In this document: positions 1 to 23,057 of the stretch, one piece after another
How the letters are laid out: each line of letters begins with the position of its first letter
Position numbering within the stretch: the first letter of the stretch is position 1
Origin: a virus
Length of the DNA: 27,051 bases
Strand: one strand, 5' to 3'
IMG/VR virus record: IMGVR_UViG_3300022562_000186
Span: 1 to 27,051 of that record
Notes under the pieces: generated by a model
Database searches by the model: none
The model's input: the letters and a program-made list of their open reading frames with translations, nothing else
Told to the model about the DNA's origin: nothing
Translations under genes and position numbers: made by a program

Positions 1-3000
1 ATAAGGGGCTTTGAATGCGCTTTTTTCTGCCAACTCCTTCGCTACCTCTCTTTCCATTTTTAGCTTGCGCAATGGCTCTAGCTGGCTTCTGGCTTTCCAT
101 GATTGACGCTCTAATGCTTTTAACATCCCTCTGGTCGTGCGAGAATCATTCTTGAAATCTACCATGACCTGCTGCGGAATTTTATCTTTAATCCATTGCG
201 CGGCATCCCACGCCATCTCGCGCAGGAATTTATTCCTTTCTTTTAATTTATGACGTTTTGGAATGTCGTAGAATTTTCTTTGCAAATCAACGGCAATAGA
301 ATCATTACGAAAATCAATATCGTAGATCCATTGCATCTCGTTCCTCATGTGATTGAAAACGCTAGAAGTATTAGCTCTATTTGCATATTCAATCAAACGA
401 TTCATTGATTCATACATCAATCCATAGCGCGCCAATTGCGCCGAATCTATTGAATTTTTAATTTTCTCAGCGTTAAGTCTTTCCCATATTCTTACTTCTG
501 CCGCAGAACCATCCTTAAGAGCAATTAATGCCTTTTTAACCGCATCAGTAAATTTTTTATCCGACGATCCTCCGCGAGCGAAATCCTCCTCTTCTTGTAT
601 CGCATGCTGTAATTCGTGCAATAGAATCTTTTTGAATTCATCATTAGGAACCTTATCGCCGATAGTTATCATTTTCTCTTTTGGATTGAAAGTCCCTCCA
701 GTTCCACTTTCTTCTGATACTTTTAAATCAGCCAATAACGGATAGGCGTCGAATAGAGCATTATGCTCAAGAATGTCCGAAACTGAAACGTCCCTTCTTT
801 TCAAATCAGCTCTTTTAAAATCGTCTTTTATTTTTGATTTATCGTCACTAATTTCAAATCGCCATTTACGATCTGCGCCCCTGTGCCACCCGGTTTTCTG
901 TCGAATTACTGATTGACTTTTACCTAATCTCTCCATTTCAATAGCCAGAGAAAATTCCTTCTCGTTTGCTGTCCATGCTCCAATACCGGCAAATTGGAAT
1001 AACTTCATCTGTTCAGGCGCTTTACCTTGCCCGGTAAGCGTCATATTCTTGGGGATTCCTTCACGCACGCCGCGCAACCCGGCAGCTTCTCTGGCCTTTT
1101 TGTCCGCCTTCATATTAGAGTCGGCTTCGTCTTTACCGGGCTTTCCTCCTCTTTCGGCAACACCAAACGAGAATCCTATGCCGTGTAAAGATCCTTTGGG
1201 GCTAGAAACCCCTTTTGCCTTTAATATTTCTTGGGCGGCTTTCGCCTGTTGAACAAGCAGATCCTTGTCATTTCCAAGCATGTAGAACTCATCGCCAGAA
1301 ATATGATAGGCATTATCAGAAACCTCGTGGAGCGCATTAGCGACAGTCTTTAAAAGCTCATCCCCGGTACTCTGACCAAGGAAATCATTCACGGATTTTA
1401 AGGCGTCCACGTCGAGACTAAGGACAACCTTAGCGTCTGGCAGATCCTCATTAAACGCGCGCCTATTGTTCAGACCTGTAAGTTCATGGCCATAAATTGC
1501 TGCATACTGCTCCTCTGGCGACATTGCGGCAATCTTTTCTCGACGGGCGATATCCTGGCGGCGCTCTCCTATTCTCCGCCCTGGCTCAGCTCGCCCTTCT
1601 CCTCGACGCTCCCCTTGGCGCTGCGTCACTTCTGGTTTGATTCTGGCTTTCAACTCATTTTCTGACGGGATAACTTTTGGTGTCGGTTTCGCGGGAGACG
1701 CATACCCCTCAATCTGTGTAGGAGATTCTGGCCCCTGGAATTGCAGACCAAACCGACTATAAACTTCTTCTGGAGTGATCCCTAATTTATCAGCCATCGA
1801 AGTAGCAAAAGCCTTATGTAGAGCCGCATACTTTTCAGCTACTTGCGGAGTAAATCGACCAGTTGAAACGATTTGCTGCTTCACGTTCTCGGCGACCTTA
1901 TTCGCCGATTTTTCCATGGCAACCCGTCGCTGGTCTTGTTCCAGGGCCTTTGACGCTTCTTTCGCAAAAGTCTCCTGACTTTCTTGTTGAAAAGCTTGCG
2001 CCTCACTGACTGTAAGGCCGTCCTGGTCATTTCTAACAATATCAGCCAGTTCAGAATAATATTCAGGGAAGTAAGTAAAAAAATCCGCTTTAGGGATGAC
2101 AACATCGCTCCCCGCATTAAGGCTATCGACGATGCTAGCCGCTGTATCTGGAGATTTTTCTTCGATCTTTGATAGCAAGTCCGGTTTGCCTTGGAAGAAT
2201 GCCGCGGCGTCGTTCGGCGCGATGTAAATATTATTTTCTGCTCCTAAGTTTTTCTCAACAAAATCCTTGAACACTTCCGGAGAATTTTGTCGTAATTGTG
2301 AGGCGGTGGCCGAGGTGACAGCCTCATCTATCCTTTGAATATCATCAAGTGATTGATTAGCTTTGTGCTTTGCCGTTTCGTATTTCGACAACGCGGCCGT
2401 AGGCGCGCCCATGAGAGCGCTCTGCACAAGAGTGGCTATTAATGTTTGATAGGCGGCTCCTGGGCGCTCCTTCATATATTGGCCCCAGGTCTTGTCGGGG
2501 TTTGCAATAGCGGTATCAACCGCATCCTGGGTGAATGTTGCTATCTGTTCTCCGACTATCTCTCTGCCGACATATCCAGCAAGAAGCTTCTTAATCCCTT
2601 CTTTGCCAAACTTGTCAACGACGTATCCCATCGGTAATTTTTCGGTAACTACTTCTAGCGTCCCCTCTAGACCACCACCCAGCAATGCCTCTCCGGACGT
2701 TGCTCCCCTGGACTTATATTTTCCATAAGATTGCGTCTCGGTCATCATGCCGGCAGATGCAAGCATAGGCGTAGGGCTCTTGGTTAGAATAGAAGCAGCG
2801 AACCCTGGAGCTTGCTGGATTGTGCTAACCACCCCGCTATAGGCAGCTCCGGCAGTCGCAGATTTGAATTGCGGATCAGTCAACAACTCATCCGTTACTG
2901 CTGCATCATATTTCTGCATCGCATCCTTCGCCATGCGGTCGTAACCCATAAAATCCGCATATTGCATTCTAATCCCCTGGCGAGTCTTTTCTAGCCCGCG

Positions 3001-3402
3001 CGGGAATGACTTAAGCAGCCCCTTCACTGTGTTCATAAAAGTCCCCTCTGGCTTCGATAGGGGCTTTAGTGAGTGCTCAGTTTTGAATAGATTATTCACG
3101 TCGCTATGGGCTAACTTAGCGAATTCTGGATCAGAGAATTTTTCTCGAAGCACTGGGGAAGATTTCAGAACGGCTTCAATTTCCTGGTTCCTCTGGCGGC
3201 GCTGTATCTCCTGGGTATTTCGCTCTATAACATCATCAGGCAGCCCGGTTGCATTTCGAATATTTCGAATATTGGAATATCTTTCCGGGTCGGTTTTGGT
3301 GGCAATGTCAATAATATTCCTAGACTGTTGCTGATTCCGCGCGGCCTCATCAGCGAAATATTTATCTAACGCGTTTATATTTTGCCGGTCATTATCAGCC
3401 AT
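1..3402 (-). CDS. Large internal virion (gp16-position) polyvalent protein with GGDEF and HExxH domains, partial
   Basis: The frame is open without a stop from an ATG at 3402 to the window edge, giving 1134 residues with the C-terminus missing. The start has AAGGAA about 10 bases upstream and overlaps the previous gene by 28 bases. Visible order: a charged helical N-terminus; a hydrophobic, Gly/Ala-rich region (about 175-340) that could be membrane-active; a helical region with an Arg/Glu-rich linker ending near 630; a GGDEF domain (about 636-790) with HELTGLNNRR at 639-648, D664, N672, D681 and SGDEF at 702-706; then a domain with TGWHRGADRKWRFEISDD (837-854) and the zincin motif HELQH at 929-933 followed by an ARGG segment, as in the LPD domains of phage polyvalent proteins. 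Its place after gp14- and gp15-like genes matches T7 gp16, an ejected internal core protein. The T7 transglycosylase domain is not seen in this part. Family-level calls come from motif recognition; injection is inferred. Confidence 0.85.
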   Translation of the reverse strand, partial: MADNDRQNINALDKYFADEAARNQQQSRNIIDIATKTDPERYSNIRNIRNATGLPDDVIERNTQEIQRRQRNQEIEAVLKSSPVLREKFSDPEFAKLAHSDVNNLFKTEHSLKPLSKPEGTFMNTVKGLLKSFPRGLEKTRQGIRMQYADFMGYDRMAKDAMQKYDAAVTDELLTDPQFKSATAGAAYSGVVSTIQQAPGFAASILTKSPTPMLASAGMMTETQSYGKYKSRGATSGEALLGGGLEGTLEVVTEKLPMGYVVDKFGKEGIKKLLAGYVGREIVGEQIATFTQDAVDTAIANPDKTWGQYMKERPGAAYQTLIATLVQSALMGAPTAALSKYETAKHKANQSLDDIQRIDEAVTSATASQLRQNSPEVFKDFVEKNLGAENNIYIAPNDAAAFFQGKPDLLSKIEEKSPDTAASIVDSLNAGSDVVIPKADFFTYFPEYYSELADIVRNDQDGLTVSEAQAFQQESQETFAKEASKALEQDQRRVAMEKSANKVAENVKQQIVSTGRFTPQVAEKYAALHKAFATSMADKLGITPEEVYSRFGLQFQGPESPTQIEGYASPAKPTPKVIPSENELKARIKPEVTQRQGERRGEGRAEPGRRIGERRQDIARREKIAAMSPEEQYAAIYGHELTGLNNRRAFNEDLPDAKVVLSLDVDALKSVNDFLGQSTGDELLKTVANALHEVSDNAYHISGDEFYMLGNDKDLLVQQAKAAQEILKAKGVSSPKGSLHGIGFSFGVAERGGKPGKDEADSNMKADKKAREAAGLRGVREGIPKNMTLTGQGKAPEQMKLFQFAGIGAWTANEKEFSLAIEMERLGKSQSVIRQKTGWHRGADRKWRFEISDDKSKIKDDFKRADLKRRDVSVSDILEHNALFDAYPLLADLKVSEESGTGGTFNPKEKMITIGDKVPNDEFKKILLHELQHAIQEEEDFARGGSSDKKFTDAVKKALIALKDGSAAEVRIWERLNAEKIKNSIDSAQLARYGLMYESMNRLIEYANRANTSSVFNHMRNEMQWIYDIDFRNDSIAVDLQRKFYDIPKRHKLKERNKFLREMAWDAAQWIKDKIPQQVMVDFKNDSRTTRGMLKALERQSWKARSQLEPLRKLKMEREVAKELAEKSAFKAPY

Positions 3403-5045
3403 GCTCTAGCTATTCCTTTCTCAGTTACAGGTATGCCGCTATCCATCATTCTGCGGATTAAATAAACGCGGTCTTTTTCAGGGATATCGTTTAATTTGAC
3501 CTCCTTCCCTTCGACTTCAACATAGGCGCCTTCTAGCTCTTTAGGCGTTAGAGTGGATACAGGCTTTTCCGGGTCAGTAAACCATTCATCAACAAAGACT
3601 TTGTTTTCCAACATCTTATCCATGATCTCGTTGAGTTTTTGGTCGTCCGGTTTCTTCCCGGTCTTTGCTTGGTATGCTGCTATCTCATTGTTTAAATTGG
3701 AATAAAAAGAAGCTATAGCCCTCCCTTGATCATTGTTTTTGTCGGTATTTTTGGGGTCAAGCCCCGCCTGCGCGATCTTTCTCTTTGCTAGTTGAGATTG
3801 AGATTCGATGTAGTCTATATTCTCCGGCTTGGTCTGCAATTCCATCATTTGCTTAAGCTCGGATTTATTCAGATATGGCTGATACTTAAGAAGATTTTGA
3901 TTCTTAAATTGCGCGGGGTCGTCTTTTGCCATGCGAATTAAATCGTAGTAAACACCCCAATTCGTCTCTGTTTTCTGTCCGGACTTTTCTCTTTCGGCAT
4001 AAGCATGCAAGGACTCACGCTCTTTGCCATCCATCTGCTCCAGTGTGGTTAGTGGTATCTTGTTAAAATCGCGTGATTGAGCGTAGATAGTCCAGGCCGT
4101 GTTCGCAGCTTGGTCATAGTTGTCTTTTCGTAGCTGGTCCTTTTCGCGGAACCGATCTCGTATACTTGCGACAATTGCATCCTCTTGGTCGCCTTTGTAT
4201 TTCTTTCTGGCCTCTGCAAGCGCTTGCGCCTCAGTCAAGTTTCTATTCATCGCATCGTCGGCGACGGTTTGGGCTAATATCTTGTCATCGCTTTTCTTTA
4301 TCAGATTTTCCAAGGCCGCGTATTTATCGGCCTCAATCTGTGATTTGGATTGTTTATAGTATTCCTTAGCATATTCAGGGTTATCAGAATCAATCGCTTG
4401 CGCTATAACGGTTTCGTGTATCGCAGAGGTAGCCTGCAATTCCTTCGCCTTTGCGAAATCGCTTGACCACCCCTCATGATCTGCCTGGTCGGCAATGAGC
4501 CTCTTGGTGCGCTCTACTGACAACGCCACATCTCCAGGCTTATTCCAATTAGCCCCTGCGTTTTGAACTTCTATTGCTCGACCACCCTCAAGAACCTGTT
4601 TCGCATAAACGTCCTTCTCCTTCTGGATGTGGTTTATTAGATTATTACCATATTGCAAACGAGAAACATCAGCGCGGCCGCGAAAAAATTGCCGCTGCTG
4701 GTCGTTATCTAGCTTGCTCGAGATCTCATCGGCTGCCTGATTAAACTTCTCCAGATAGCTTTTATACACTGGCTTGCCGGCTACCTGGCCAGCCTTTAGG
4801 CGCTCATACCCGTCATCTCCGGAAGTGAAATCGATTGATTTTTGCTGCAATTGGTTGAATGCGTCCTCGGCGCGTAGCTTGTCGTCGCGATACTGAACTT
4901 TATCAATGGCAGCCGCGAACTCAGATATCCCCTGGCCTATAGACCTAGCCCCGCTGCCAACATCAGGCGTGCCAAAATTAGCCGGGCCAACAACACCCGG
5001 AGTCGGCCTACCCCCGAAATCCTCGATATTCGGTAACTTAGCCAT
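3375..5045 (-). CDS. gp15-like internal virion protein
   Basis: 556 residues starting MAKLPNIEDFGG. The ATG at 5045 is preferred over an in-frame candidate at 5105, because it makes an 8-base ATGGCTAA overlap with the stop of the gp14-like gene, a common phage coupling arrangement; the Shine-Dalgarno is weak (GGTAGTGG). Apart from a Gly/Pro-rich N-terminus the protein is almost wholly charged and helical, with many Lys, Glu, Asp and Gln, no membrane segment and no recognisable catalytic motif. Size, composition and position between a gp14-like and a gp16-like gene fit the T7 gp15 ejection core protein, which forms the middle part of the tube that carries DNA across the periplasm. No direct sequence match to T7 gp15 is claimed; the role is inferred from synteny. 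Confidence 0.75.
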   Translation of the reverse strand: MAKLPNIEDFGGRPTPGVVGPANFGTPDVGSGARSIGQGISEFAAAIDKVQYRDDKLRAEDAFNQLQQKSIDFTSGDDGYERLKAGQVAGKPVYKSYLEKFNQAADEISSKLDNDQQRQFFRGRADVSRLQYGNNLINHIQKEKDVYAKQVLEGGRAIEVQNAGANWNKPGDVALSVERTKRLIADQADHEGWSSDFAKAKELQATSAIHETVIAQAIDSDNPEYAKEYYKQSKSQIEADKYAALENLIKKSDDKILAQTVADDAMNRNLTEAQALAEARKKYKGDQEDAIVASIRDRFREKDQLRKDNYDQAANTAWTIYAQSRDFNKIPLTTLEQMDGKERESLHAYAEREKSGQKTETNWGVYYDLIRMAKDDPAQFKNQNLLKYQPYLNKSELKQMMELQTKPENIDYIESQSQLAKRKIAQAGLDPKNTDKNNDQGRAIASFYSNLNNEIAAYQAKTGKKPDDQKLNEIMDKMLENKVFVDEWFTDPEKPVSTLTPKELEGAYVEVEGKEVKLNDIPEKDRVYLIRRMMDSGIPVTEKGIARAWLIMTGKI

Positions 5046-5520
5046 AACCACTACCGCTACTAGGAACTGGCGGCTTCTTATATTGCGCGTACATACTTCC
5101 ACCAAATGATAGCGCAGACCCGATCATTCCTTTGCGGATACTGCTTGCTTCTTGTTCGCCTGAATACTCTGCCATGGCGCCTTCGAATTTTATTTTCTTA
5201 GCTTGCTCCTCGGCGTCGTACATGGCAACGGCGGCCCTATAGGCGCCCTCTCCGTATATATCTGCAACAATCTTGTTTGCTGACTGGTCGCCCGATCTCC
5301 CTCCGGCTGCAGCAACAGCAAGCGCCCTTGACGCTATTATCTCGGCATTCCTACGTTCCTCAAGCATAGCCCTTTGACCGGCTGCGATAGTTTGCTGCGC
5401 CGCTTTATCGGCATACTGTCTGCGCATGCGCCCCATAAGCGCAGCCATTTTTGACTGCTGATATTGACCATAGAGGTTAAACGCCTCTCCTGCTCCCATT
5501 AATATCGCTGCTGCTGCCAT
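5038..5520 (-). CDS. gp14-like internal virion protein
   Basis: 160 residues. The N-terminus is small and hydrophobic (MAAAAILMGAGEAFNLYGQY), followed by a long Ala/Gln/Arg-rich helix (about 20-70), an AAAGGRSG turn, a second helix and a hydrophobic SALSFGG near the end. This pattern closely resembles T7 gp14: hydrophobic start, long helix, Gly-Ser turn, 'G.AYRA' helix. In T7 gp14 is ejected first and forms a pore in the outer membrane. The start at 5520 has AGGTAA about 6-7 bases upstream. It lies 7 bases from the tail nozzle gene and overlaps the gp15-like gene by 8 bases. I am confident that it is an internal virion protein and less sure of the exact pore role. Confidence 0.8.
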   Translation of the reverse strand: MAAAAILMGAGEAFNLYGQYQQSKMAALMGRMRRQYADKAAQQTIAAGQRAMLEERRNAEIIASRALAVAAAGGRSGDQSANKIVADIYGEGAYRAAVAMYDAEEQAKKIKFEGAMAEYSGEQEASSIRKGMIGSALSFGGSMYAQYKKPPVPSSGSGYG

Positions 5521-5527
5521 AAATTAC

Positions 5528-8422
5528 CTAGAATTTATCATGTGTTTCAATGGAAATAGCCAAACTTAATACTGTGCAAGGTCGCGGAGATTGCGCCTGC
5601 AAGCATACTCTTGAATCAGAATTCCAGCTCCCGTTAAAGAAAAATGCTTCTTCGTCATACGCCGCATGAACTGTATCCGCGGCAGTAGCTACCTCGTCCT
5701 CGACTAGCGGTAGATTATCCAAGCTATCAAAATCAGGCCCGTAGGTAATTCCTTGGTAATGAGTATTATATAGTATTAAGCCTATGTTGTTTATGCGTTT
5801 CTTTTGGTTCATAGCTGTACCAAGGCCGGCTGCGTAAGCGAGTTTCGTTGATTTCCATTTGGCGGTGTAGGACAACCCAACCGCCCCATTAGCTACCGCT
5901 ACGCTTGCAGTTATAGCGCCGCCAGAGACAGTGTAGGAACCAAGATCCTTGCCGTCTGCCCATAATACTACTGTCTCGCCTTCTAAATGACTTAATCCGG
6001 ATACCGTGGTAGATGCGGTCTGTGAGAATGTTATAAATGAGTCCATTTGTCGGTTTACGGTCCCGCCTTGACACTGAGACTCAAGCGCCATTTTCTCCAG
6101 ATAGCGTACAGTTGCTCCGTTTATCGTTCTCCGAACAACATAGTAAACAGCGTCTTCGCCGTCTCCGGTGGCTCCTGGAAGAATCACAACATCTTCCACT
6201 TGGCCGTTTGTCGTGAACTCGGTCCAGCAGAGAATATCTTCTTTTTGATCGTAGATTAGTATCGCTGCCGTACCATCAGATCTAACGCAGTGAATTCTTG
6301 TGTCTGGCTGCCTTTGAACTGCAATATGAGAGAATCCGACTCCCCCGGCATTTGGGTAGAACAAGGTTAGATCATGTGATCCATATTCGAAATCATCGGA
6401 GTTATAGACCATCTCGAACAGCCTCACTCCTCCCTTCTGAACAAAAATGCCAGTCTTATCAATCTTCACCGCCGCAACAGCAGCCGATCCTTGTGTCGAT
6501 ATGTCCTTGATATTGAATCTAGATGTTGTTAATGGCTCGTCATCGCCATTAGACCTGCAAACGAATTCAGAGCCTTCGCCGCCCATAAGTAGTCGGCGCA
6601 AAGGAAGGAGCCAGTTGATAGTATCCACAGGTCCAGAGCCTATAGAGCTGGCAATTGGGGCAGAGTCTCCGACCGTGTCCTCATTAAATCCATAGTAAGA
6701 GTCACTGACAGATAGGTCTATATGGTCTTTCCCAGCCCATGCAATCCGCCCCTCCACTAGGGCGACACTGGTCGGCCACCCGCGGCGGTCGCTCCATCTT
6801 CCCTCGTTCCATGCGTCCGTCGCTGTAGTGGCCCCAAGATCGGTAATAACTTCCGCACTAACAACGGTTTCAGATGTGTAATCAGTGATCCTGACAATTC
6901 CGTCTATATTCCCGAGCGGGTAGTCTAGAGTTAAGGAAACTGGTCCTTCTGACGTGGCTGTTCCGTCTGATACGTAGGCCGTAAACCCGGAAGTGTCTAC
7001 CCCTAGACTAAACGTAGTCGCGCTAAGAACGGTAATTGTGTACGAATTACCATTGACCTCTGTCATTCCAACCACCCCGGCCATGCCGACAACTTCCCCA
7101 GTGGTGAAGCCATGCGCCGCCGATGTCGTGACAACGCCTGGGTTTGCCTGGGTTATATTGGTGACGACGGCAGAGCTAAAGTTTGCCGTATCTACGCCGA
7201 TTCTATACCAAGCGATCTGGTTGTCTAGCCCATCGTCATAGGCGACAGTGGCATTCGTAGTGTATGTTGTCGCCGTCTCCCATGGTCCGGTAGAAGCGGT
7301 TAATGATCGCTGGAGAGTTACCGTCCCGGACCAGATGCCAGACCTAGTGACAGTAAAAATTCTGCTCGTTGTGACCCCGGTCACTCGGATAGTGCTAGTC
7401 CAGGAGCCGCCAGTGCTTACGCTCGCGGTTACTGTTTGACCGTCAGAAGTGATTCTGTACAGAGTGCCGACGCTTGTCAGCTTGAAAAGCTTTTGCGAAG
7501 CTGTAAGGGTTATATTCCCAGTCAAGGCGCTAGGAGTTATCGTTGTAGCCGTGAGATTGATATCGCGGAAAGGCCCATCAGTGGTTTCGTACTTAACAAC
7601 GGACCATGAAGTGGTAGAACGACGTTCGATTTTATACTGCTGACTTCCCCACGCTATAAACACAATATCGCCTGACTGGTCGTATCTGATATTTGGGAGA
7701 TCCGCAGCCGTGAACGGGGAGACGATTGTCATCGTACCAGATGATTCCAGCGCGCAAGAATCAACCAAAACCTGGCGTTTCAGGTTTGAGGAAAATTGTA
7801 TGAAGAAATTAGCCGAAGTCGGCGTGAAAGAAAGTGAATGATACCCGGTGTCAAGGGTTGTCTCGGTAATATAATCATCAGTTCCAGCCGCAGACCCGCA
7901 TCTACAAATAACCGGACCTCGTTGGATGTGTATCGCCAAAGCGTGTTCTGTCCCAGATTCATTAACTGCAACAGATTGATACCTCTTGGCGTAATTAGTT
8001 CCATCGCCAGTAAGGCCCAAATAACCGCCAGTCACCCATGCGGAAGTGGCGCCAGCATCATCGTCATCCGTCCAGCTTGTAACGTCTGTATCGAAACCAC
8101 TGTTTGCAACCGTTGCCGTAACGGCTGATCTTGTTACTAGGGAGTCATTAACCCACACGCGGCAAAGTAGATTGGTCAGCTCGATCAGTGCGGCATCAGA
8201 TGAAGAAAAAATAAAAGGTATATATTTTGCGGAGTTATTAGATGCGGTCGCCCCTATGTATCCATGTCCTGGACGAAGCATCATAGACCCAAGAGCCCTT
8301 GGGCGGAAATTCAGATAGGTTTCTGCTGATAGTTGCAGTCTCTCTAAATCAGTGCGCGCTAAAGCGAGAGGGCTTACAAGCCCCCGGTTAAAGCTGAATA
8401 GACTGATATTCTGCTTTGGCAT
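5528..8422 (-). CDS. gp12-like tail tube/nozzle protein with inserted sugar-binding-like and FCCH-like domains
   Basis: 964 residues. The N-terminus has the sequence pattern of podovirus nozzle proteins: FNRGLVSP, then LSAETYLNFRPRALGSMMLR, then PGHGYIG (10-56). A beta-rich segment at about 105-230, beginning ANSGFDTDVTSW, looks like a jelly-roll carbohydrate-binding module. At about 421-495 a segment with ITQANPGVVTTSAAHGF and GVVGMTEVNG matches the E1 FCCH-like beta repeat often seen in podovirus tail proteins. The nozzle fold resumes around 535 (WSDRRGWPTSVALVEGRIAW). The start at 8422 has AGGAT about 9 bases upstream. T7 gp12 is about 790 residues, so the inserts account for the extra length. 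It forms the end of the short tail together with the gp11-like protein encoded just before it. The sugar-binding role of the insert is inferred from pattern only. Confidence 0.88.
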   Translation of the reverse strand: MPKQNISLFSFNRGLVSPLALARTDLERLQLSAETYLNFRPRALGSMMLRPGHGYIGATASNNSAKYIPFIFSSSDAALIELTNLLCRVWVNDSLVTRSAVTATVANSGFDTDVTSWTDDDDAGATSAWVTGGYLGLTGDGTNYAKRYQSVAVNESGTEHALAIHIQRGPVICRCGSAAGTDDYITETTLDTGYHSLSFTPTSANFFIQFSSNLKRQVLVDSCALESSGTMTIVSPFTAADLPNIRYDQSGDIVFIAWGSQQYKIERRSTTSWSVVKYETTDGPFRDINLTATTITPSALTGNITLTASQKLFKLTSVGTLYRITSDGQTVTASVSTGGSWTSTIRVTGVTTSRIFTVTRSGIWSGTVTLQRSLTASTGPWETATTYTTNATVAYDDGLDNQIAWYRIGVDTANFSSAVVTNITQANPGVVTTSAAHGFTTGEVVGMAGVVGMTEVNGNSYTITVLSATTFSLGVDTSGFTAYVSDGTATSEGPVSLTLDYPLGNIDGIVRITDYTSETVVSAEVITDLGATTATDAWNEGRWSDRRGWPTSVALVEGRIAWAGKDHIDLSVSDSYYGFNEDTVGDSAPIASSIGSGPVDTINWLLPLRRLLMGGEGSEFVCRSNGDDEPLTTSRFNIKDISTQGSAAVAAVKIDKTGIFVQKGGVRLFEMVYNSDDFEYGSHDLTLFYPNAGGVGFSHIAVQRQPDTRIHCVRSDGTAAILIYDQKEDILCWTEFTTNGQVEDVVILPGATGDGEDAVYYVVRRTINGATVRYLEKMALESQCQGGTVNRQMDSFITFSQTASTTVSGLSHLEGETVVLWADGKDLGSYTVSGGAITASVAVANGAVGLSYTAKWKSTKLAYAAGLGTAMNQKKRINNIGLILYNTHYQGITYGPDFDSLDNLPLVEDEVATAADTVHAAYDEEAFFFNGSWNSDSRVCLQAQSPRPCTVLSLAISIETHDKF

Positions 8423-8428
8423 TCATGG

Positions 8429-9067
8429 CTATCCTATTAGATTTCCTCTACTTCCATTATCTCTGCTTGATCTGCCGTATCGGCTGCGCCCCCAGTTTCC
8501 TGGCGCCGGGAATTGCTGTGGAGTATTTGCGGCGTCTAATGATTTCGCCTTTCTGAGGAAATCGTTCATTTTCTTTTCGACGCTATCTCTCTTTTTCTCG
8601 TCTCCAGTTAATTTTGTGATGATTTCGCTTGCGAAATAGGCGGCGGCGAAATTAGTGAAACTCTCCGGCCATATCGTTAAATCGTTGCCGTAAGACGTTC
8701 CATCAGAGACATACTGGACATAGATCTGGTCTATTGAGGCGTACCAGTAGCCATTGAGATCACTGTAGTTAATTAGCGGATTTTTAAAGAATTCGTCGCT
8801 ACATACACCGCAAGTCTTAACGAAATCAGAGGGCTGCTGGAATGCTCGATTGTACCCAAACTGCGGCGTAACAGACGTATCGTAATCAAACCTCACGTAT
8901 CTACTACACCAATTCCAAAAGCCCTGCTCTAGACAATATTTCACCCCGCCCTCGCTCCACACCGCGTCTAGAAGTCTGCGCGGCTCACGCTCCTCCGTTA
9001 ATGAGGACAAAGAACGCTCCCCGCAGTAACGTAGAGCCTTATTGTAGAGCTTGAGACGGTCTGTCAT
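8429..9067 (-). CDS. gp11-like tail tube/adaptor protein
   Basis: 212 residues. It begins MTDRLKLYNKALRYCGERSL and continues through EEREPRRLLDAVW and FWNWCSRYVRF, the typical opening of tail tubular protein A (T7 gp11, 196 residues) and related gatekeeper proteins. A late helix (AAAYFASEIITKLTGDEKKRD) is also typical. The C-terminus is Arg/Gly/Ser-rich (GRSRYGRSSRDNGSRG). The protein is expected to form the ring between portal and nozzle. The ATG overlaps the stop of the preceding gene as ATGA (9064-9067), which implies coupled translation. The nozzle gene follows 6 bases after its stop, the usual gp11-gp12 order. Confidence 0.88.
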   Translation of the reverse strand: MTDRLKLYNKALRYCGERSLSSLTEEREPRRLLDAVWSEGGVKYCLEQGFWNWCSRYVRFDYDTSVTPQFGYNRAFQQPSDFVKTCGVCSDEFFKNPLINYSDLNGYWYASIDQIYVQYVSDGTSYGNDLTIWPESFTNFAAAYFASEIITKLTGDEKKRDSVEKKMNDFLRKAKSLDAANTPQQFPAPGNWGRSRYGRSSRDNGSRGNLIG

Positions 9068-10007: not shown

Positions 10008-10856
10008 TTATTCGTAAGCTGTGCCATCAGCTGTGACTACAACCACACCGCTATTCTGCATTAGAATAGCGCCCATATCCATCGAGCAACGCGCGAAGGA
10101 ATACCCTTGCTCCTCGTTGTATCCAATCACATTCTGCATACCTGCTTTATTAGCGGCATGGCCGATTGAGTTTTTGTGATACATGAAGGATTTACCGCTC
10201 GTTGTACCCTGGCCAGGAAGGTTCGGATGCTCGATAACCAGCGCATTCCGCCAGCGATAAGCCATCGGTTTGTCGCGCCAAGAAGCATCTTGGCCAGCAA
10301 ACGGACGCATATCTACATAGTCAGCCTTAGCGAATTCCGGAGCTTCTTCCAGATAAGCTAAGAAAGCCGGTTGGCAAAGGAAGGTAATATTGCCATCCCA
10401 TGGAACGCCAGCATTAGACAGCTTAACGCGGCTACGCTGGAATAATTGCACGCTAGGCGTACTGGTAGAACCGCCGACAGTAATAGTGCCACCATTTAGC
10501 GTGGTGATAATGTCATCGTCGATCTTCCGGTTGATAACCGCCATCGTAGTATCCTGCATGATGGCACGTTGGTTGCCTTGAGAAGCAAAAACGTTGAAAT
10601 CTGTCTTGCGGACCAAATCATGCCACTCTTGCAGAGTAGCCGTATATTGGTTGTTATTGTCAGCACGCGCCGCAATAAGTCCGTTGGCTCCGCGAGTTTG
10701 AGCAGTCGCACCTCCAGAATCAGCTACCAAGAAAGTGGCTTTATTGCCCTTGATAACGGCCTCTGTCGTAACGGTATCACGAAGAAGTGATTGCCGCTGC
10801 TCGAACCCTTTAACGAACTCTTGACGGTACTGAATTTGGAATGCTACATCACTCAT
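10008..10856 (-). CDS. Major capsid protein
   Basis: 282 residues. Helical N-terminus MSDVAFQIQYRQEFVKGFEQ, then LLRDTVTTEAVIKGNKATFLV, a Gly-rich loop, EWHDLVRKTDFNVFA, and a long helix leading to RKIDDDIITTLNGG. The later part has the spine-helix and A-domain style of HK97-fold capsids (VPWDGNITFLCQPAFLAYLEE) and ends GVVVVTADGTAYE. It is similar to the capsid proteins of a group of podoviruses that share this gene order. The start at 10856 has AGAGGA about 7 bases upstream. Its position directly after the scaffold gene, with a 178-base leader and a terminator one gene later, is typical for a highly expressed capsid gene. Confidence 0.85.
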   Translation of the reverse strand: MSDVAFQIQYRQEFVKGFEQRQSLLRDTVTTEAVIKGNKATFLVADSGGATAQTRGANGLIAARADNNNQYTATLQEWHDLVRKTDFNVFASQGNQRAIMQDTTMAVINRKIDDDIITTLNGGTITVGGSTSTPSVQLFQRSRVKLSNAGVPWDGNITFLCQPAFLAYLEEAPEFAKADYVDMRPFAGQDASWRDKPMAYRWRNALVIEHPNLPGQGTTSGKSFMYHKNSIGHAANKAGMQNVIGYNEEQGYSFARCSMDMGAILMQNSGVVVVTADGTAYE

Positions 10857-11970: not shown

Positions 11971-12229
11971 CTTCTTTCCTCCGAATTTCGGTCACATTGA
12001 CCTTTAACATTGTTACAATCTCCAACCCAACCGCACGCTTGCCCTCGGCAAATGCTGTGGCATGGGTATCGCCTGGTATGTACGACATATCGTAAGTGTG
12101 ACAGACTGAATTAATCAGCCACGCCAGGGCTTGTTTTTGTTGATTATCGCTAGCTACTCCGTCCTCGATAGCCTGGAATGCTTTCATTATGTAAGAAGGA
12201 GCCTTAGACGGCTGCTCTGGCTTGCGCAT
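11954..12229 (-). CDS. Bbp19-family small phage protein
   Basis: 91 residues. The core (about 30-75), ALAWLINSVCHTYDMSYIPG then DTHATAFAEGKRAVGLEIV, resembles the small protein family named after Bbp19 of Bordetella phage BPP-1 (pattern: helix, 'PGD...A...EGRR..GL'). It is found between portal and scaffold genes in many podoviruses. The start at 12229 lies inside the end of the portal gene (26-base overlap), with AGGAGACGCTGCA before the ATG. The molecular function is not established to my knowledge; a role in head assembly is inferred from position. Confidence 0.78.
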   Translation of the reverse strand: MRKPEQPSKAPSYIMKAFQAIEDGVASDNQQKQALAWLINSVCHTYDMSYIPGDTHATAFAEGKRAVGLEIVTMLKVNVTEIRRKEDETKS

Positions 12230-13829
12230 TTGCAGCGTCTCCTAGATTCTTAGCCACCTCTGAACTCTGTTGCATGCGCTCCATGTCGGCCTGTTGTGCC
12301 GCCGCTTCTTGATTCTGACGCTCGGCCGCCATAACTTCATCCTCTGTGCGCAGCCACTCGGAAGGTGTTTTTACGCCTAAAAGGGAATCGCGCAAAGCTT
12401 TCTTAATATCCAGCATAGCCAGAGTAGAGCCGTCAATACTGGCGGCCTCAGCAAGTAATTGTTTTGCCTCAAGGAATTTTTGCCCCTTCTGTCTGTCGAT
12501 AGCTTCATGAAGCGGGGATTGGAACACGAATTGGAACTGCTTTCCACTCAGTGACCTTGGCATATTATCGCGCGGATTGCCAAAAGCCCCAGCCCTCATC
12601 ATCTTGGAGTACGTTAATTCACAAATCCCGCCGTTGTATTCCATTTCCATAGGCTCGAAAATAGGTGCAGCCTGACGTATATACTCCTGGACTCTCTGGC
12701 CGACCTCAAAGGCCGTCATCTCAGGGCTCTGCTGTGGTAACGATAGGCGGTCGAGGTAAAATGCCGAGCGAATAATCTCGCGCTGGTCCGCTTTCATTTC
12801 CATTCCATAAGGGATGCCACGGAGATCTTGAGCTAATGGGCGTAATGCCTCCCCCAGTCTTTCGTCATATTCGTTATCAACCCAAGTAATCCCCCCGGCA
12901 TATATAGACACGTCGCTCTTAACTGTGTCGGCAACGGCGACTAATGGCGGGTTAACTGCCTTCTCACCGGCCTCTAGCAGCGAAAGGGTCATAGCCTGGA
13001 TCAATCTTGCGTCCGGCAGCGCGGTGATCGCCGCTGGGGAATAGGCGTATTGAGAACCAGATACAGTTTGCCAGCGCGGAACCACATAATCCATTTCCCA
13101 TACAGGAATGCACTCTATTTCTGAATCATTGTCGCAATCAAGGAAAATTGACCAGTAAGGCCGGGTCATAGAATCTTTATCGTAATAATTTGCTTCGCAA
13201 ACAATGTGATAGACTTCTATTTTGTCGAACGGTGCCATCCGTGATCGCTCTTCTACTTTGCTGCTCACTCTCCCTGGGAACAAGTTATTTAATTGGCGCG
13301 CGGTTGGCTTCCATCGACGAACAAAAAATCCTATATTCCCCTCTTCATTCTCCATCCAAGCACAGTCTCTTAGGTGCCAGGATTGATACAAGAGCCCGTC
13401 TGCGTTACGATTCAGCCTGGTTGTAATCACAGCCTGGCCAAAAGTCGCAAAATCATGGTCCCCTTCCTTGGTCGCGCGGGTAAATTGTGTGCGCTTTTGG
13501 TACATCTCTTGGCGCATTTTCTTAGATACCCACTCAAGGTACTGCTTGCCCTCAGTATCGATATAGTCGCCTTCCATTGGCGCCATCTCAAACCATTCAA
13601 TCTGTCTAGGGCGGAGCATCGCCCCGAGCTGATTTCCTAAATCCCTTCTCGTTAATACTGGGTATGAATCATACAGATAGTCTGCGAACTCCTGCCCTAC
13701 AGATCTTTCTATTGTAAAATCAGCTCTTTCCGGGTAAAAATTTTCACTAAGCTCCTGCCAAAGAGACAGGAGCATGCCGCGATCATTAAGAAGCTGACCT
13801 GCCTGTTCTTTGAGCTGCTTAATATTCAC
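12204..13829 (-). CDS. Portal (head-to-tail connector, gp8-like) protein
   Basis: 541 residues. It opens LKEQAGQLLNDRGMLLSLWQ then ELSENFYPERADFT, the standard start of the podovirus head-to-tail connecting protein family (T7 gp8, 536 residues). Further typical parts are RRDLGNQLGAMLRPRQIEWF, the middle region with FFVRRWKPTARQL, the segment with SAFYLDRLSLPQQSPEMTAF, and a Gln/Ala-rich C-terminus. It forms the dodecameric ring at the capsid vertex through which DNA is packaged and ejected. The start is GTG at 13829, supported by AGGAG 8 bases upstream and by a GTGA overlap with the previous stop. It is encoded after the terminase and before the scaffold, as expected. Confidence 0.92.
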   Translation of the reverse strand: MNIKQLKEQAGQLLNDRGMLLSLWQELSENFYPERADFTIERSVGQEFADYLYDSYPVLTRRDLGNQLGAMLRPRQIEWFEMAPMEGDYIDTEGKQYLEWVSKKMRQEMYQKRTQFTRATKEGDHDFATFGQAVITTRLNRNADGLLYQSWHLRDCAWMENEEGNIGFFVRRWKPTARQLNNLFPGRVSSKVEERSRMAPFDKIEVYHIVCEANYYDKDSMTRPYWSIFLDCDNDSEIECIPVWEMDYVVPRWQTVSGSQYAYSPAAITALPDARLIQAMTLSLLEAGEKAVNPPLVAVADTVKSDVSIYAGGITWVDNEYDERLGEALRPLAQDLRGIPYGMEMKADQREIIRSAFYLDRLSLPQQSPEMTAFEVGQRVQEYIRQAAPIFEPMEMEYNGGICELTYSKMMRAGAFGNPRDNMPRSLSGKQFQFVFQSPLHEAIDRQKGQKFLEAKQLLAEAASIDGSTLAMLDIKKALRDSLLGVKTPSEWLRTEDEVMAAERQNQEAAAQQADMERMQQSSEVAKNLGDAANAQARAAV

Positions 13830-21226: not shown

Positions 21227-21537
21227 CAGAATATTTCCGAAAATATAATATCGACACACTGTTGCGCGATGTATCCTGGGAGCTTTCCCTTAGCTATCTC
21301 ACCCCTGATGACGTGAGTTAGGCGAGTTACCATCTTGCCGTGAATCTGGTCGGCTAGTTTTGCGGCGTTAGGTTTCCCGCTCATAATCGCTGAGTTGGCT
21401 TTCTTTGCGATCTCTTCCGCGATACGGTAGGCCATTTCTGAGTGCATTGATACCTCAGTGACAGGCTTATTAAAGCCAATGACCACCATGCCCTCATTCA
21501 TTTGAATGTCCATATTAATATCTGGCTCTCTGCTCAT
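21226..21537 (-). CDS. Unknown small phage protein inside the sugar cassette
   Basis: 103 residues. A Met/Asp-rich N-terminus (MSREPDINMDIQMNEGMVVI) leads into one beta turn (GFNKPVTEVSM) and a mostly helical remainder (SEMAYRIAEEIAKKANSAIM, ending AQQCVDIIFSEIF). There is no catalytic motif, signal or membrane segment. It is not PseH, which is a GNAT acetyltransferase of about 170 residues, nor PseG, which is about 270. It overlaps the aminotransferase stop by 4 bases (ATGA) and the next gene by one. It may be a general phage protein caught among the sugar genes. Confidence 0.7.
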   Translation of the reverse strand: MSREPDINMDIQMNEGMVVIGFNKPVTEVSMHSEMAYRIAEEIAKKANSAIMSGKPNAAKLADQIHGKMVTRLTHVIRGEIAKGKLPGYIAQQCVDIIFSEIF

Positions 21538-22166
21538 TGGAATACCTTAAATTTTGATAAGTCTGGATAATCGTCGTTTGGGATCGGGTCGTTGTGTTTT
21601 GGCAATACTGAGAGCTTGTGGAGTAATCTTGCGGCTACATCCGGAGACATATAGCAATGATACCCTATCATGTCAAAGTTATCGTCTTTCGGCGCTACTC
21701 CCTCGGTCCTACCATCAAAGCGCGCTTTACGGAACCATTTATCCGCTTCCGGATCATCATGGAGGATAGCGCCGCCCTGGGTGTCTCCTAGGATTTTGGT
21801 GGTATGAAAAGAAACGCATTGGAATTGTCCCTTTTTATACATTCCAGATGTAAATTTTCTAGCGCTATCCCATATAGGAGCCGGGAATAATTGATACTCC
21901 CCGAGCCATTCTTCATGATCGTTAAAACAAACTTGCCCGCCAGCATGTATTATACTCTGAGGAACACTGACGTAAGTTCTTGACGGGATCATTAAATCGT
22001 TTTTTCGTCCTGGCGGCCAATAGCAGACTTTTACATGATTAAAAAAATACTTGCATGACAGTAATATTGCCATCGTGCAGCTATTTACCGTTACCGCATA
22101 AGGCGCGCCGGTGTACTCGCATAGCGCCGCCTCGAAATCCTTCACCACGTTAAACGGAGATTTCAT
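21534..22166 (-). CDS. Shortened DegT/PseC-like PLP aminotransferase
   Basis: 210 residues. It belongs to the DegT/DnrJ/EryC1/StrS family, whose members transfer an amino group to a keto-sugar nucleotide using PLP. Visible motifs are FEAALCEYTGAPYAVTVNSC (11-30), MIPSRTYVSVPQSIIHAGG (59-77), APIWDSARKF (96-105; D100 is the PLP ring contact), VSFHTTKILGDTQGG (118-132; K124 is the Schiff-base lysine) and GYHCYMSPDVAARLLHKL (168-185). The family is usually 360-390 residues; here about 30 N-terminal residues and nearly the whole C-terminal domain are absent, with no sign of a frameshift into the next gene. GGGAG lies 8 bases before the start. It sits right after pseB, where pseC is expected. It may be a minimal enzyme or inactive. 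Confidence 0.78.
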   Translation of the reverse strand: MKSPFNVVKDFEAALCEYTGAPYAVTVNSCTMAILLSCKYFFNHVKVCYWPPGRKNDLMIPSRTYVSVPQSIIHAGGQVCFNDHEEWLGEYQLFPAPIWDSARKFTSGMYKKGQFQCVSFHTTKILGDTQGGAILHDDPEADKWFRKARFDGRTEGVAPKDDNFDMIGYHCYMSPDVAARLLHKLSVLPKHNDPIPNDDYPDLSKFKVFQ

Positions 22167-22225
22167 TCACGGCTCCCTTTGTCCATCTGCTTGAATTCAT
22201 TGGTTACTTGGTGATGATTAGACAT
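22163..22225 (-). CDS. Possible 20-residue coupled leader frame
   Basis: An ATG inside the last codons of pseB (22225) opens a 20-residue frame, MSNHHQVTNEFKQMDKGSRE, ending with a TGA that overlaps the ATG of the aminotransferase (ATGA). It fits the coupled pattern of the operon exactly and could carry ribosomes across the gap, but such a short frame may also be chance. Confidence 0.3.
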   Translation of the reverse strand: MSNHHQVTNEFKQMDKGSRE

Positions 22226-23057
22226 GGGCTAGCATCCCCGCCAATTCTTGCACTGACAATCGTCTGGCTATATCACTAGAATTCCCATCTGCCATAGACT
22301 CGTGCAATTTCTCATAACTGCCGAGTCCGGTCTTGACATAATTATTTATCCCCATAGCCATCGCAAGATCGCCGAGACGGTAAGCTGGTAGTTTTGGGAT
22401 TACCGGATTAGCCGGCATTGTTACGATTGTGTCAATAACCAAGCCAACTGCTTCGTGCATATACATCCAGAACCGCGTGCATTCTGGGTCGGTTACCCGG
22501 ATCTCTCTCTTATTCGCAATTGCGTCTCGCCAAACAGGAATAACGCTTCCAGTCGATCCGGCCACGTTCCCGTATCGTGTTACGGCGAATCTTGGTCCTC
22601 TTACACCGTACATATTATTAGAAGCCAGAAAGAGCTGTTCCGCCAAAGCTTTAGAACATCCGTATGGGCTGATAGGTGCATATGCCTTATCTGTAGAAAG
22701 GAACACAACGCTTTTCACGCCGTTGTACACCGCAGCGTCGATCACATTCATAGACCCTATGACATTAGTGTTTACCATTTCACTAGGATTATACGCACCG
22801 ACTTCGATCCGCTTCAAAGCCGCGGCGTGAATAACTATCTCTATCCCATTCATAGCCACTTTGAGGCGTTCTTTATCTCGCACGCAGCCAACAAAGAACC
22901 TCAGGCGAGGGTCGTTACCGAACTGCGTCCTCATTTGCGCCTGTTTCCATTCGTCTCGCGAGTATATGCAGATGCGGTTGTAGATATTATTGTCGAGAAG
23001 ATATTTGACGAAAGCCTGGCCAAAAGCGCCGACTCCACCAGTGATTAGTATACTCAA
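22218..23057 (-). CDS. pseB: UDP-GlcNAc 4,6-dehydratase/5-epimerase (PseB-like SDR)
   Basis: 279 residues. The first enzyme of pseudaminic acid synthesis: it turns UDP-GlcNAc into a 4-keto-6-deoxy sugar. The Rossmann turn ITGGVGAFG (5-13) binds NADP; YSRDEWKQAQM (32-42), HAAALKRIEVGAYNPSEMV (77-95), STDKA (121-125) and YGCSK (132-136) are typical of the PseB/FlaA1 group, as is RYGNVAGSTGSVIPVW. GSYEKLHESM near 246-255 is the usual 'GEKLHE' loop. Family length is about 330, so this is shorter at the C-terminus. The start is TTG at 23057, supported by a perfect AGGAGG six bases upstream and no nearby ATG. It is the first gene of the sugar cassette, just after the terminator at 23090-23111. Confidence 0.88.
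   Translation of the reverse strand: MSILITGGVGAFGQAFVKYLLDNNIYNRICIYSRDEWKQAQMRTQFGNDPRLRFFVGCVRDKERLKVAMNGIEIVIHAAALKRIEVGAYNPSEMVNTNVIGSMNVIDAAVYNGVKSVVFLSTDKAYAPISPYGCSKALAEQLFLASNNMYGVRGPRFAVTRYGNVAGSTGSVIPVWRDAIANKREIRVTDPECTRFWMYMHEAVGLVIDTIVTMPANPVIPKLPAYRLGDLAMAMGINNYVKTGLGSYEKLHESMADGNSSDIARRLSVQELAGMLAHV

What the first reader, a model, noticed from the sequence alone, without database searches (positions are those of the whole stretch)
1200..1500. Complete GGDEF (diguanylate cyclase-type) domain inside a phage ejection protein
In the gp16-position protein, residues about 636-790 carry the whole GGDEF pattern: LTGLNNRR, LSLDVDALKSVND, GDELL, SGDEF and a late FSFGVA plus ADSNMKADKKARE. 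D664, N672 and D681 have the same spacing as the metal and guanine contacts D327, N335 and D344 of PleD. The first Gly of GGDEF is Ser, a change I recall as tolerated in some active cyclases. Where the inhibitory RxxD site would be, the sequence is EVSD, so product inhibition should be absent. An injected, unregulated c-di-GMP or related second-messenger enzyme would be a new way for a phage to change host motility, biofilm state or nucleotide-based defence at the moment of entry.
Basis: partly seen in the sequence, partly recalled or inferred. Interest (0 to 1): 0.88.

Follow-up and report, generated by a model that had tools for sequence, protein, structure and literature searches.

The report
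Phage ejection protein carrying cyclase domain
This podovirus-like phage carries, inside a large protein that is probably injected into the host with its DNA, an intact-looking enzyme domain of the type that makes the bacterial signal c-di-GMP; the domain is real and its active site is strictly conserved in dozens of related phages, but such injected signalling domains were already proposed in 2017, so this is a well-supported new example rather than a new kind of system.

Summary
A 1134-aa minus-strand protein, cut off by the contig end, carries a GGDEF domain at residues ~636-784 (window ~1051-1497; Pfam E 6.7e-13). It is predicted with high confidence (pLDDT 92.8), and the best PDB matches are diguanylate cyclases. 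Upstream lie capsid, tail, internal-virion and transglycosylase genes in BPP-1-like order, so ejection is likely but not shown.

Dozens of viral relatives sit mostly inside giant polyvalent proteins. The metal, guanine and catalytic residues are essentially invariant, also in copies found without using the motif concerned. SGDEF, first thought a tolerated change, is the family signature. The RxxD inhibitory site is missing in nearly all. Relative to Pseudomonas phage AF gp16, the domain is a clean ~230-residue insertion between a conserved scaffold and an LPD23/zincin module: a swappable cargo.

Most likely it is an active diguanylate cyclase without classical product inhibition, delivered at entry, perhaps freed by the zincin. 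Catalysis, product and delivery are inferred. Iyer et al. 2017 already proposed GGDEF in injected polyvalent proteins, so this is a new member of a known kind. Newer observation: an inorganic pyrophosphatase domain often lies beside GGDEF in relatives (11 of 16 co-occurrences within 100 residues), not in this window.

The parts
1..3402 (-). large polyvalent, probably ejected protein P0001 (1134 aa seen, C-terminus cut by contig end)
   Evidence: order of upstream genes like BPP-1 bbp14-bbp10
1705..3402 (-). N-terminal ejection scaffold, residues 1-566; 28% identical to Bbp10 of Bordetella phage BPP-1 over 566 aligned positions
3058..3318 (-). LPD22 (large polyvalent protein associated domain 22), residues 29-115
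   Evidence: E 2e-14
1006..1704 (-). cargo insertion, residues ~567-799, absent from the homologous Pseudomonas phage AF gp16
1051..1497 (-). GGDEF domain, residues ~636-784 (Pfam match 641-771 = 1090-1482)
1411..1413 (-). D664, first metal Asp (PleD D327 position)
   Evidence: 64/64 in large viral copies
1387..1389 (-). N672, guanine contact (PleD N335 position)
   Evidence: 64/64
1360..1362 (-). D681, guanine contact (PleD D344 position)
   Evidence: 55/64 D, 6 N, 3 T
1285..1299 (-). SGDEF motif, residues 702-706 (family signature YHISGDEF)
   Evidence: G703, D704, E705 in 63/63; kept in copies found without this motif
1315..1326 (-). E693-V-S-D696 in place of the RxxD inhibitory site
   Evidence: R..D at these positions in 1 of 64 large copies
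1099..1101 (-). K768 (phosphate-binding Lys, PleD K442 position by alignment)
   Evidence: 62/62; alignment to DgcR
829..999 (-). LPD23, residues 802-858
   Evidence: E 7e-17
487..720 (-). putative zincin metallopeptidase (DUF6782), residues 895-972, HELQH at 929-933
   Evidence: E 2.5e-6, just over cut-off
3375..5105 (-). virion transglycosylase/endolysin-like protein (phrog_10475)
5038..5520 (-). internal virion protein (phrog_418)
5528..8422 (-). tail protein (phrog_376) with an E1_FCCH-like insert
8429..9067 (-). tail (tubular) protein (phrog_394)
10008..10856 (-). major capsid protein
12204..13829 (-). portal / head-tail connector

Best explanation
The domain is a catalytically competent diguanylate cyclase carried as swappable cargo in a T7-gp16-like large ejection (polyvalent) protein. 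The protein is packaged in the virion and enters the host with the DNA. The adjacent zincin probably helps to release the cargo, two GGDEF units meet (several copies enter together), and GTP is turned into c-di-GMP without RxxD product inhibition. This gives an early pulse that alters host physiology, surface receptors or nucleotide-based responses before phage genes are expressed. Shown here: domain, fold, conserved active site, missing I-site motif, gene order, cargo-like insertion. Inferred: packaging, ejection, zincin release, dimerisation, catalysis, product and effect.
For: Pfam GGDEF over cut-off. AF2 pLDDT 92.8; Foldseek best PDB hits are diguanylate cyclases (4urg, SiaD, DgcB, WspR, DgcZ, PleD). 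Profile search matches PleD 1w25 at 5.5e-15. Active site nearly invariant over 64 large viral copies, not an effect of pattern selection: 44 of the 45 copies found only through DxDxLKxxND cover the motif region and all keep GDE, and the 7 found only through YHISGDE keep D664, N672 and D673. The invariant Asn argues for guanine: N/S recognition of guanine/adenine in Cas10 and GGDEF enzymes (PMC12657218). Gene order capsid, tail, tail, internal virion protein, transglycosylase, giant protein as in BPP-1; eight relatives share scaffold and upstream genes. Clean insertion against phage AF gp16. Zincin next to cargo fits the cleavage model of Iyer et al. (PMC5512222). Pyrophosphatase domain beside GGDEF in relatives fits an enzyme that releases pyrophosphate.
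Against: No biochemical or virion data. SGDEF is not always active (VCA0965 A-to-S lost activity). The R446 position of PleD is not plainly conserved (K+3 Arg instead of K+4). The RxGGDEF Arg is His. No dedicated dimerisation segment was identified. D681 varies to N/T in 9 of 64 relatives. The zincin match is only just over its cut-off.
Confidence: 0.58

Rival explanations
1. The domain is a nucleotidyl cyclase or transferase, but its main product is not c-di-GMP (linear pppGpG, a hybrid cyclic dinucleotide, or an unusual linkage) and it acts as decoy, agonist or GTP sink towards nucleotide-based defences.
For: Divergent family signature (YHISGDEF; C-terminal K..RE..G.R..RG..P) not seen in canonical cyclases. 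Related palm enzymes make other cyclic dinucleotides (PMC12657218). Iyer et al. suggest interference with host nucleotide responses (PMC5512222).
Against: Both guanine contacts are kept here (N672 64/64; D681 55/64), so GTP is the expected substrate. Hypr-type cGAMP synthases replace the Asp by Ser (own knowledge), not seen here.
Confidence: 0.17
2. The domain does not catalyse but binds GTP or c-di-GMP as a sensor controlling the ejected protein, for example the zincin.
For: About a quarter of GGDEF domains have a degenerate motif and some are receptors (PMC3974145).
Against: Receptor GGDEFs typically lose catalytic acids or keep the I-site; here the acids are invariant and the RxxD is lost.
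Confidence: 0.12
3. The domain is an active cyclase but works in the producing cell (late in infection or from a prophage) rather than at entry.
For: Related standalone GGDEF genes in Yuavirus and Vojvodinavirus lie outside the structural genes; Bordetella lysogens carrying such a phage make more biofilm (PMC8471281).
Against: Here the domain sits inside a protein of the virion-gene block, on the ejection scaffold.
Confidence: 0.1

Closest known systems
GGDEF-bearing phage polyvalent proteins (Iyer et al. 2017, PMC5512222)
   Same: GGDEF beside LPD domains and a zincin in a giant protein thought to be injected
   Different: Here placed in a BPP-1-like podovirus, with active-site conservation, I-site loss, fold and a cargo-slot comparison worked out; the paper names the domain only briefly
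Yuavirus/Vojvodinavirus standalone GGDEF proteins (YuA gp44, MP1412_43, CN1)
   Same: 34-38% identical domain, same (R/H)xSGDEF-type motif and C-terminal signature; nested with the phage family in the tree, with moderate support
   Different: ~155-aa separate gene next to an antirestriction gene, not fused to an ejection protein
Bbp10 of Bordetella phage BPP-1 and gp16 of Pseudomonas phage AF
   Same: Same place in the virion-gene order and homologous scaffold; AF gp16 shares LPD23 and zincin
   Different: No GGDEF at the same place
Canonical diguanylate cyclases PleD, WspR, DgcB
   Same: Fold, D327/N335/D344 and catalytic acid positions, Lys442 position
   Different: SGDEF instead of GG(D/E)EF, no RxxD I-site, no sensory or receiver domain

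Membership tests
GGDEF domain family (PF00990) | profile match over curated cut-off | tested here: met
   49-52 bits against 23.8
GGDEF domain family (PF00990) | palm-like fold of diguanylate cyclases | tested here: met
active diguanylate cyclase | metal and guanine residues D327, N335, D344 and catalytic Glu of PleD | tested here: met
   D664, N672, D681, E705 present and conserved
active diguanylate cyclase | strict GG(D/E)EF | tested here: not met
   SGDEF; active precedents ECA3270 and probably MbaA, counter-example VCA0965 A-to-S
active diguanylate cyclase | c-di-GMP synthesis from GTP | not testable with these tools
   needs a purified protein assay
RxxD product-inhibited cyclase | RxxD five residues before the motif | tested here: not met
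   E693-V-S-D696
phage polyvalent protein | several unrelated domains including LPDs and a processing peptidase in one large protein of a phage | tested here: met
   LPD22, GGDEF, LPD23, DUF6782 zincin
T7 gp16-like ejected internal virion protein | gene position after tail, internal-virion and transglycosylase genes | tested here: met
T7 gp16-like ejected internal virion protein | presence in virion and entry into the cell | not testable with these tools
   no virion proteomics for a homologue found in the held papers
Hypr GGDEF (cGAMP synthase) | Ser in place of the PleD D344 Asp | tested here: not met
   D681

The most novel reading that the evidence does not exclude
A widespread phage-specific family of SGDEF cyclases without product inhibition is injected as interchangeable cargo of ejection proteins, often coupled to a pyrophosphatase domain that pulls the reaction forward, and sets off a c-di-GMP (or related) pulse in the host within the first minutes of infection, before any phage gene is expressed.
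Probability: 0.35. Interest if true: 0.78.

Novelty: new member of a known kind. Interest (0 to 1): 0.5.

Why it matters
If active and injected, it would let a phage rewrite a host second-messenger pool at entry: shutting motility, changing receptors (superinfection exclusion), or interfering with nucleotide-based immunity. The proposal of Iyer et al. has, as far as I found in the held papers, not been tested. The conserved family, the defined cargo boundaries and the InPase-GGDEF pairs give concrete constructs with which to test it.

Tried and rejected
Chance match: rejected by profile score, fold and dozens of conserved relatives. Motif conservation as a search artefact: rejected by the cross-check. 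Enrichment of InPase among GGDEF proteins as such: left open; InPase is common in polyvalent proteins and only 1 of 80 sampled InPase frames has a GGDEF, and no unbiased background was obtained (the LPD38 scan found only its own contig), so only adjacency was tested. The N-terminal scaffold scan found nothing and the LPD23 scan two loci. Joint AF2 model of InPase-GGDEF: pTM 0.51, read as two modules on a flexible linker, no inferred interface. Literature searches for virion proteomics of Bbp10 or AF gp16 led nowhere.

Full report
Observation. The window is a 27,051-base viral record with its main genes on the minus strand. The last gene, 1-3402 (-), is open for 1134 residues and runs off the contig. 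Pfam gives LPD22 (29-115), GGDEF (641-771, 49.2 bits, cut-off 23.8), LPD23 (802-858) and, just over its cut-off, a DUF6782 metallopeptidase (895-972) with HELQH.

Fold and active site. AF2 with 25 aligned sequences gives pLDDT 92.8, pTM 0.86 and a GGDEF-type order of helices and strands. Foldseek against the PDB returns GGDEF proteins throughout the top 50, mostly diguanylate cyclases. A profile of the family finds PleD (1w25) at 5.5e-15. Against viral predictions the two best hits are an unnamed 1143-residue protein and the standalone GGDEF protein of Bordetella phage CN1.

Family. Scans of viral contigs found 28 and then 80 loci, and genome contigs 17. Most viral copies sit in frames of about 640 to over 5000 residues; a few are ~155-residue separate genes, as in Yuavirus. 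In 64 non-redundant large copies, D664, D666, N672, D673 and G680 are invariant, K669 is 63/64, G703-D704-E705 63/63, K768 62/62, D681 55/64, H700 56/64 and S702 53/64. Because the scan patterns contained some of these residues, I checked each motif in copies found only through the other: the conservation holds. SGDEF is thus the family signature. The RxxD inhibitory motif is absent at the aligned positions in 63 of 64 large copies. A tree separates the phage family from bacterial YHISGDEF proteins (90/78, moderate) and places the Yuavirus genes inside it, with moderate support.

Surroundings and cargo slot. Upstream genes are portal, capsid, two tail proteins, an internal virion protein and a transglycosylase-like protein, the order of BPP-1 bbp21 to bbp10. 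Residues 25-554 match Bbp10 at 28%. Pseudomonas phage AF gp16 aligns with the scaffold (347-560) and directly afterwards with LPD23 plus zincin (800-987), so the GGDEF region is a clean ~230-residue insertion. Eight relatives share both scaffold and upstream genes; many other large copies lie on unrelated scaffolds, so the domain moves among ejection and polyvalent proteins.

Pyrophosphatase neighbour. In 16 of 65 large GGDEF proteins an InPase domain (PF18823) is present; in 11 it lies within 100 residues of GGDEF, on either side. Random placement gives 1.8 (none of 20,000 reached 11); placement limited to the cargo-rich region gives 4.4 (p 0.0006). Related proteins are not independent, so these p values are optimistic. 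This fits removal of the pyrophosphate that a cyclase releases. The visible part of the window's protein has no InPase.

What is known. Iyer et al. 2017 (PMC5512222) reported GGDEF domains in polyvalent proteins and proposed that they make cyclic nucleotides in the host, and that the peptidase cuts the polyprotein. YuA's standalone GGDEF is noted in PMC10333796, and a related Bordetella phage gives lysogens with more biofilm (PMC8471281), without proof that the GGDEF gene is the cause. SGDEF enzymes can be active, but not always.

Verdict. The new points are the family-wide active-site evidence, the cargo-slot boundary and the InPase-GGDEF adjacency.

Noticed in passing
L055, L063, L069, L040, L060, L043, L044, L059, L102, L103, L081 (large ORFs): Inorganic pyrophosphatase domain (PF18823) directly before or after the phage GGDEF domain in 11 of the 16 proteins that carry both; a possible functional pair.
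   Followed up: partly
window 5528-8422 (-): Tail protein contains an E1_FCCH-like domain (PF16190, E 8e-16), a domain named from ubiquitin-activating enzymes.
   Followed up: no
window 21534-22166 and 22218-23057 (-): Aminotransferase-like and nucleotide-sugar epimerase-like genes next to each other in a phage of this size, suggesting a sugar-modification function.
   Followed up: no
L002 (MP1412) 7983-8944; L003 (PaSz-4) 7983-8958: Standalone GGDEF gene of Yuavirus is followed directly by an antirestriction gene (KlcA type in MP1412), hinting at a counter-defence role.
   Followed up: no
L120, L128, L129, L131 (Sulfurimonas and kin), L123-L126 (Oribacterium): Bacterial proteins of roughly 160-660 aa with the same YHISGDEF octapeptide but outside the phage clade in the tree.
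   Followed up: partly
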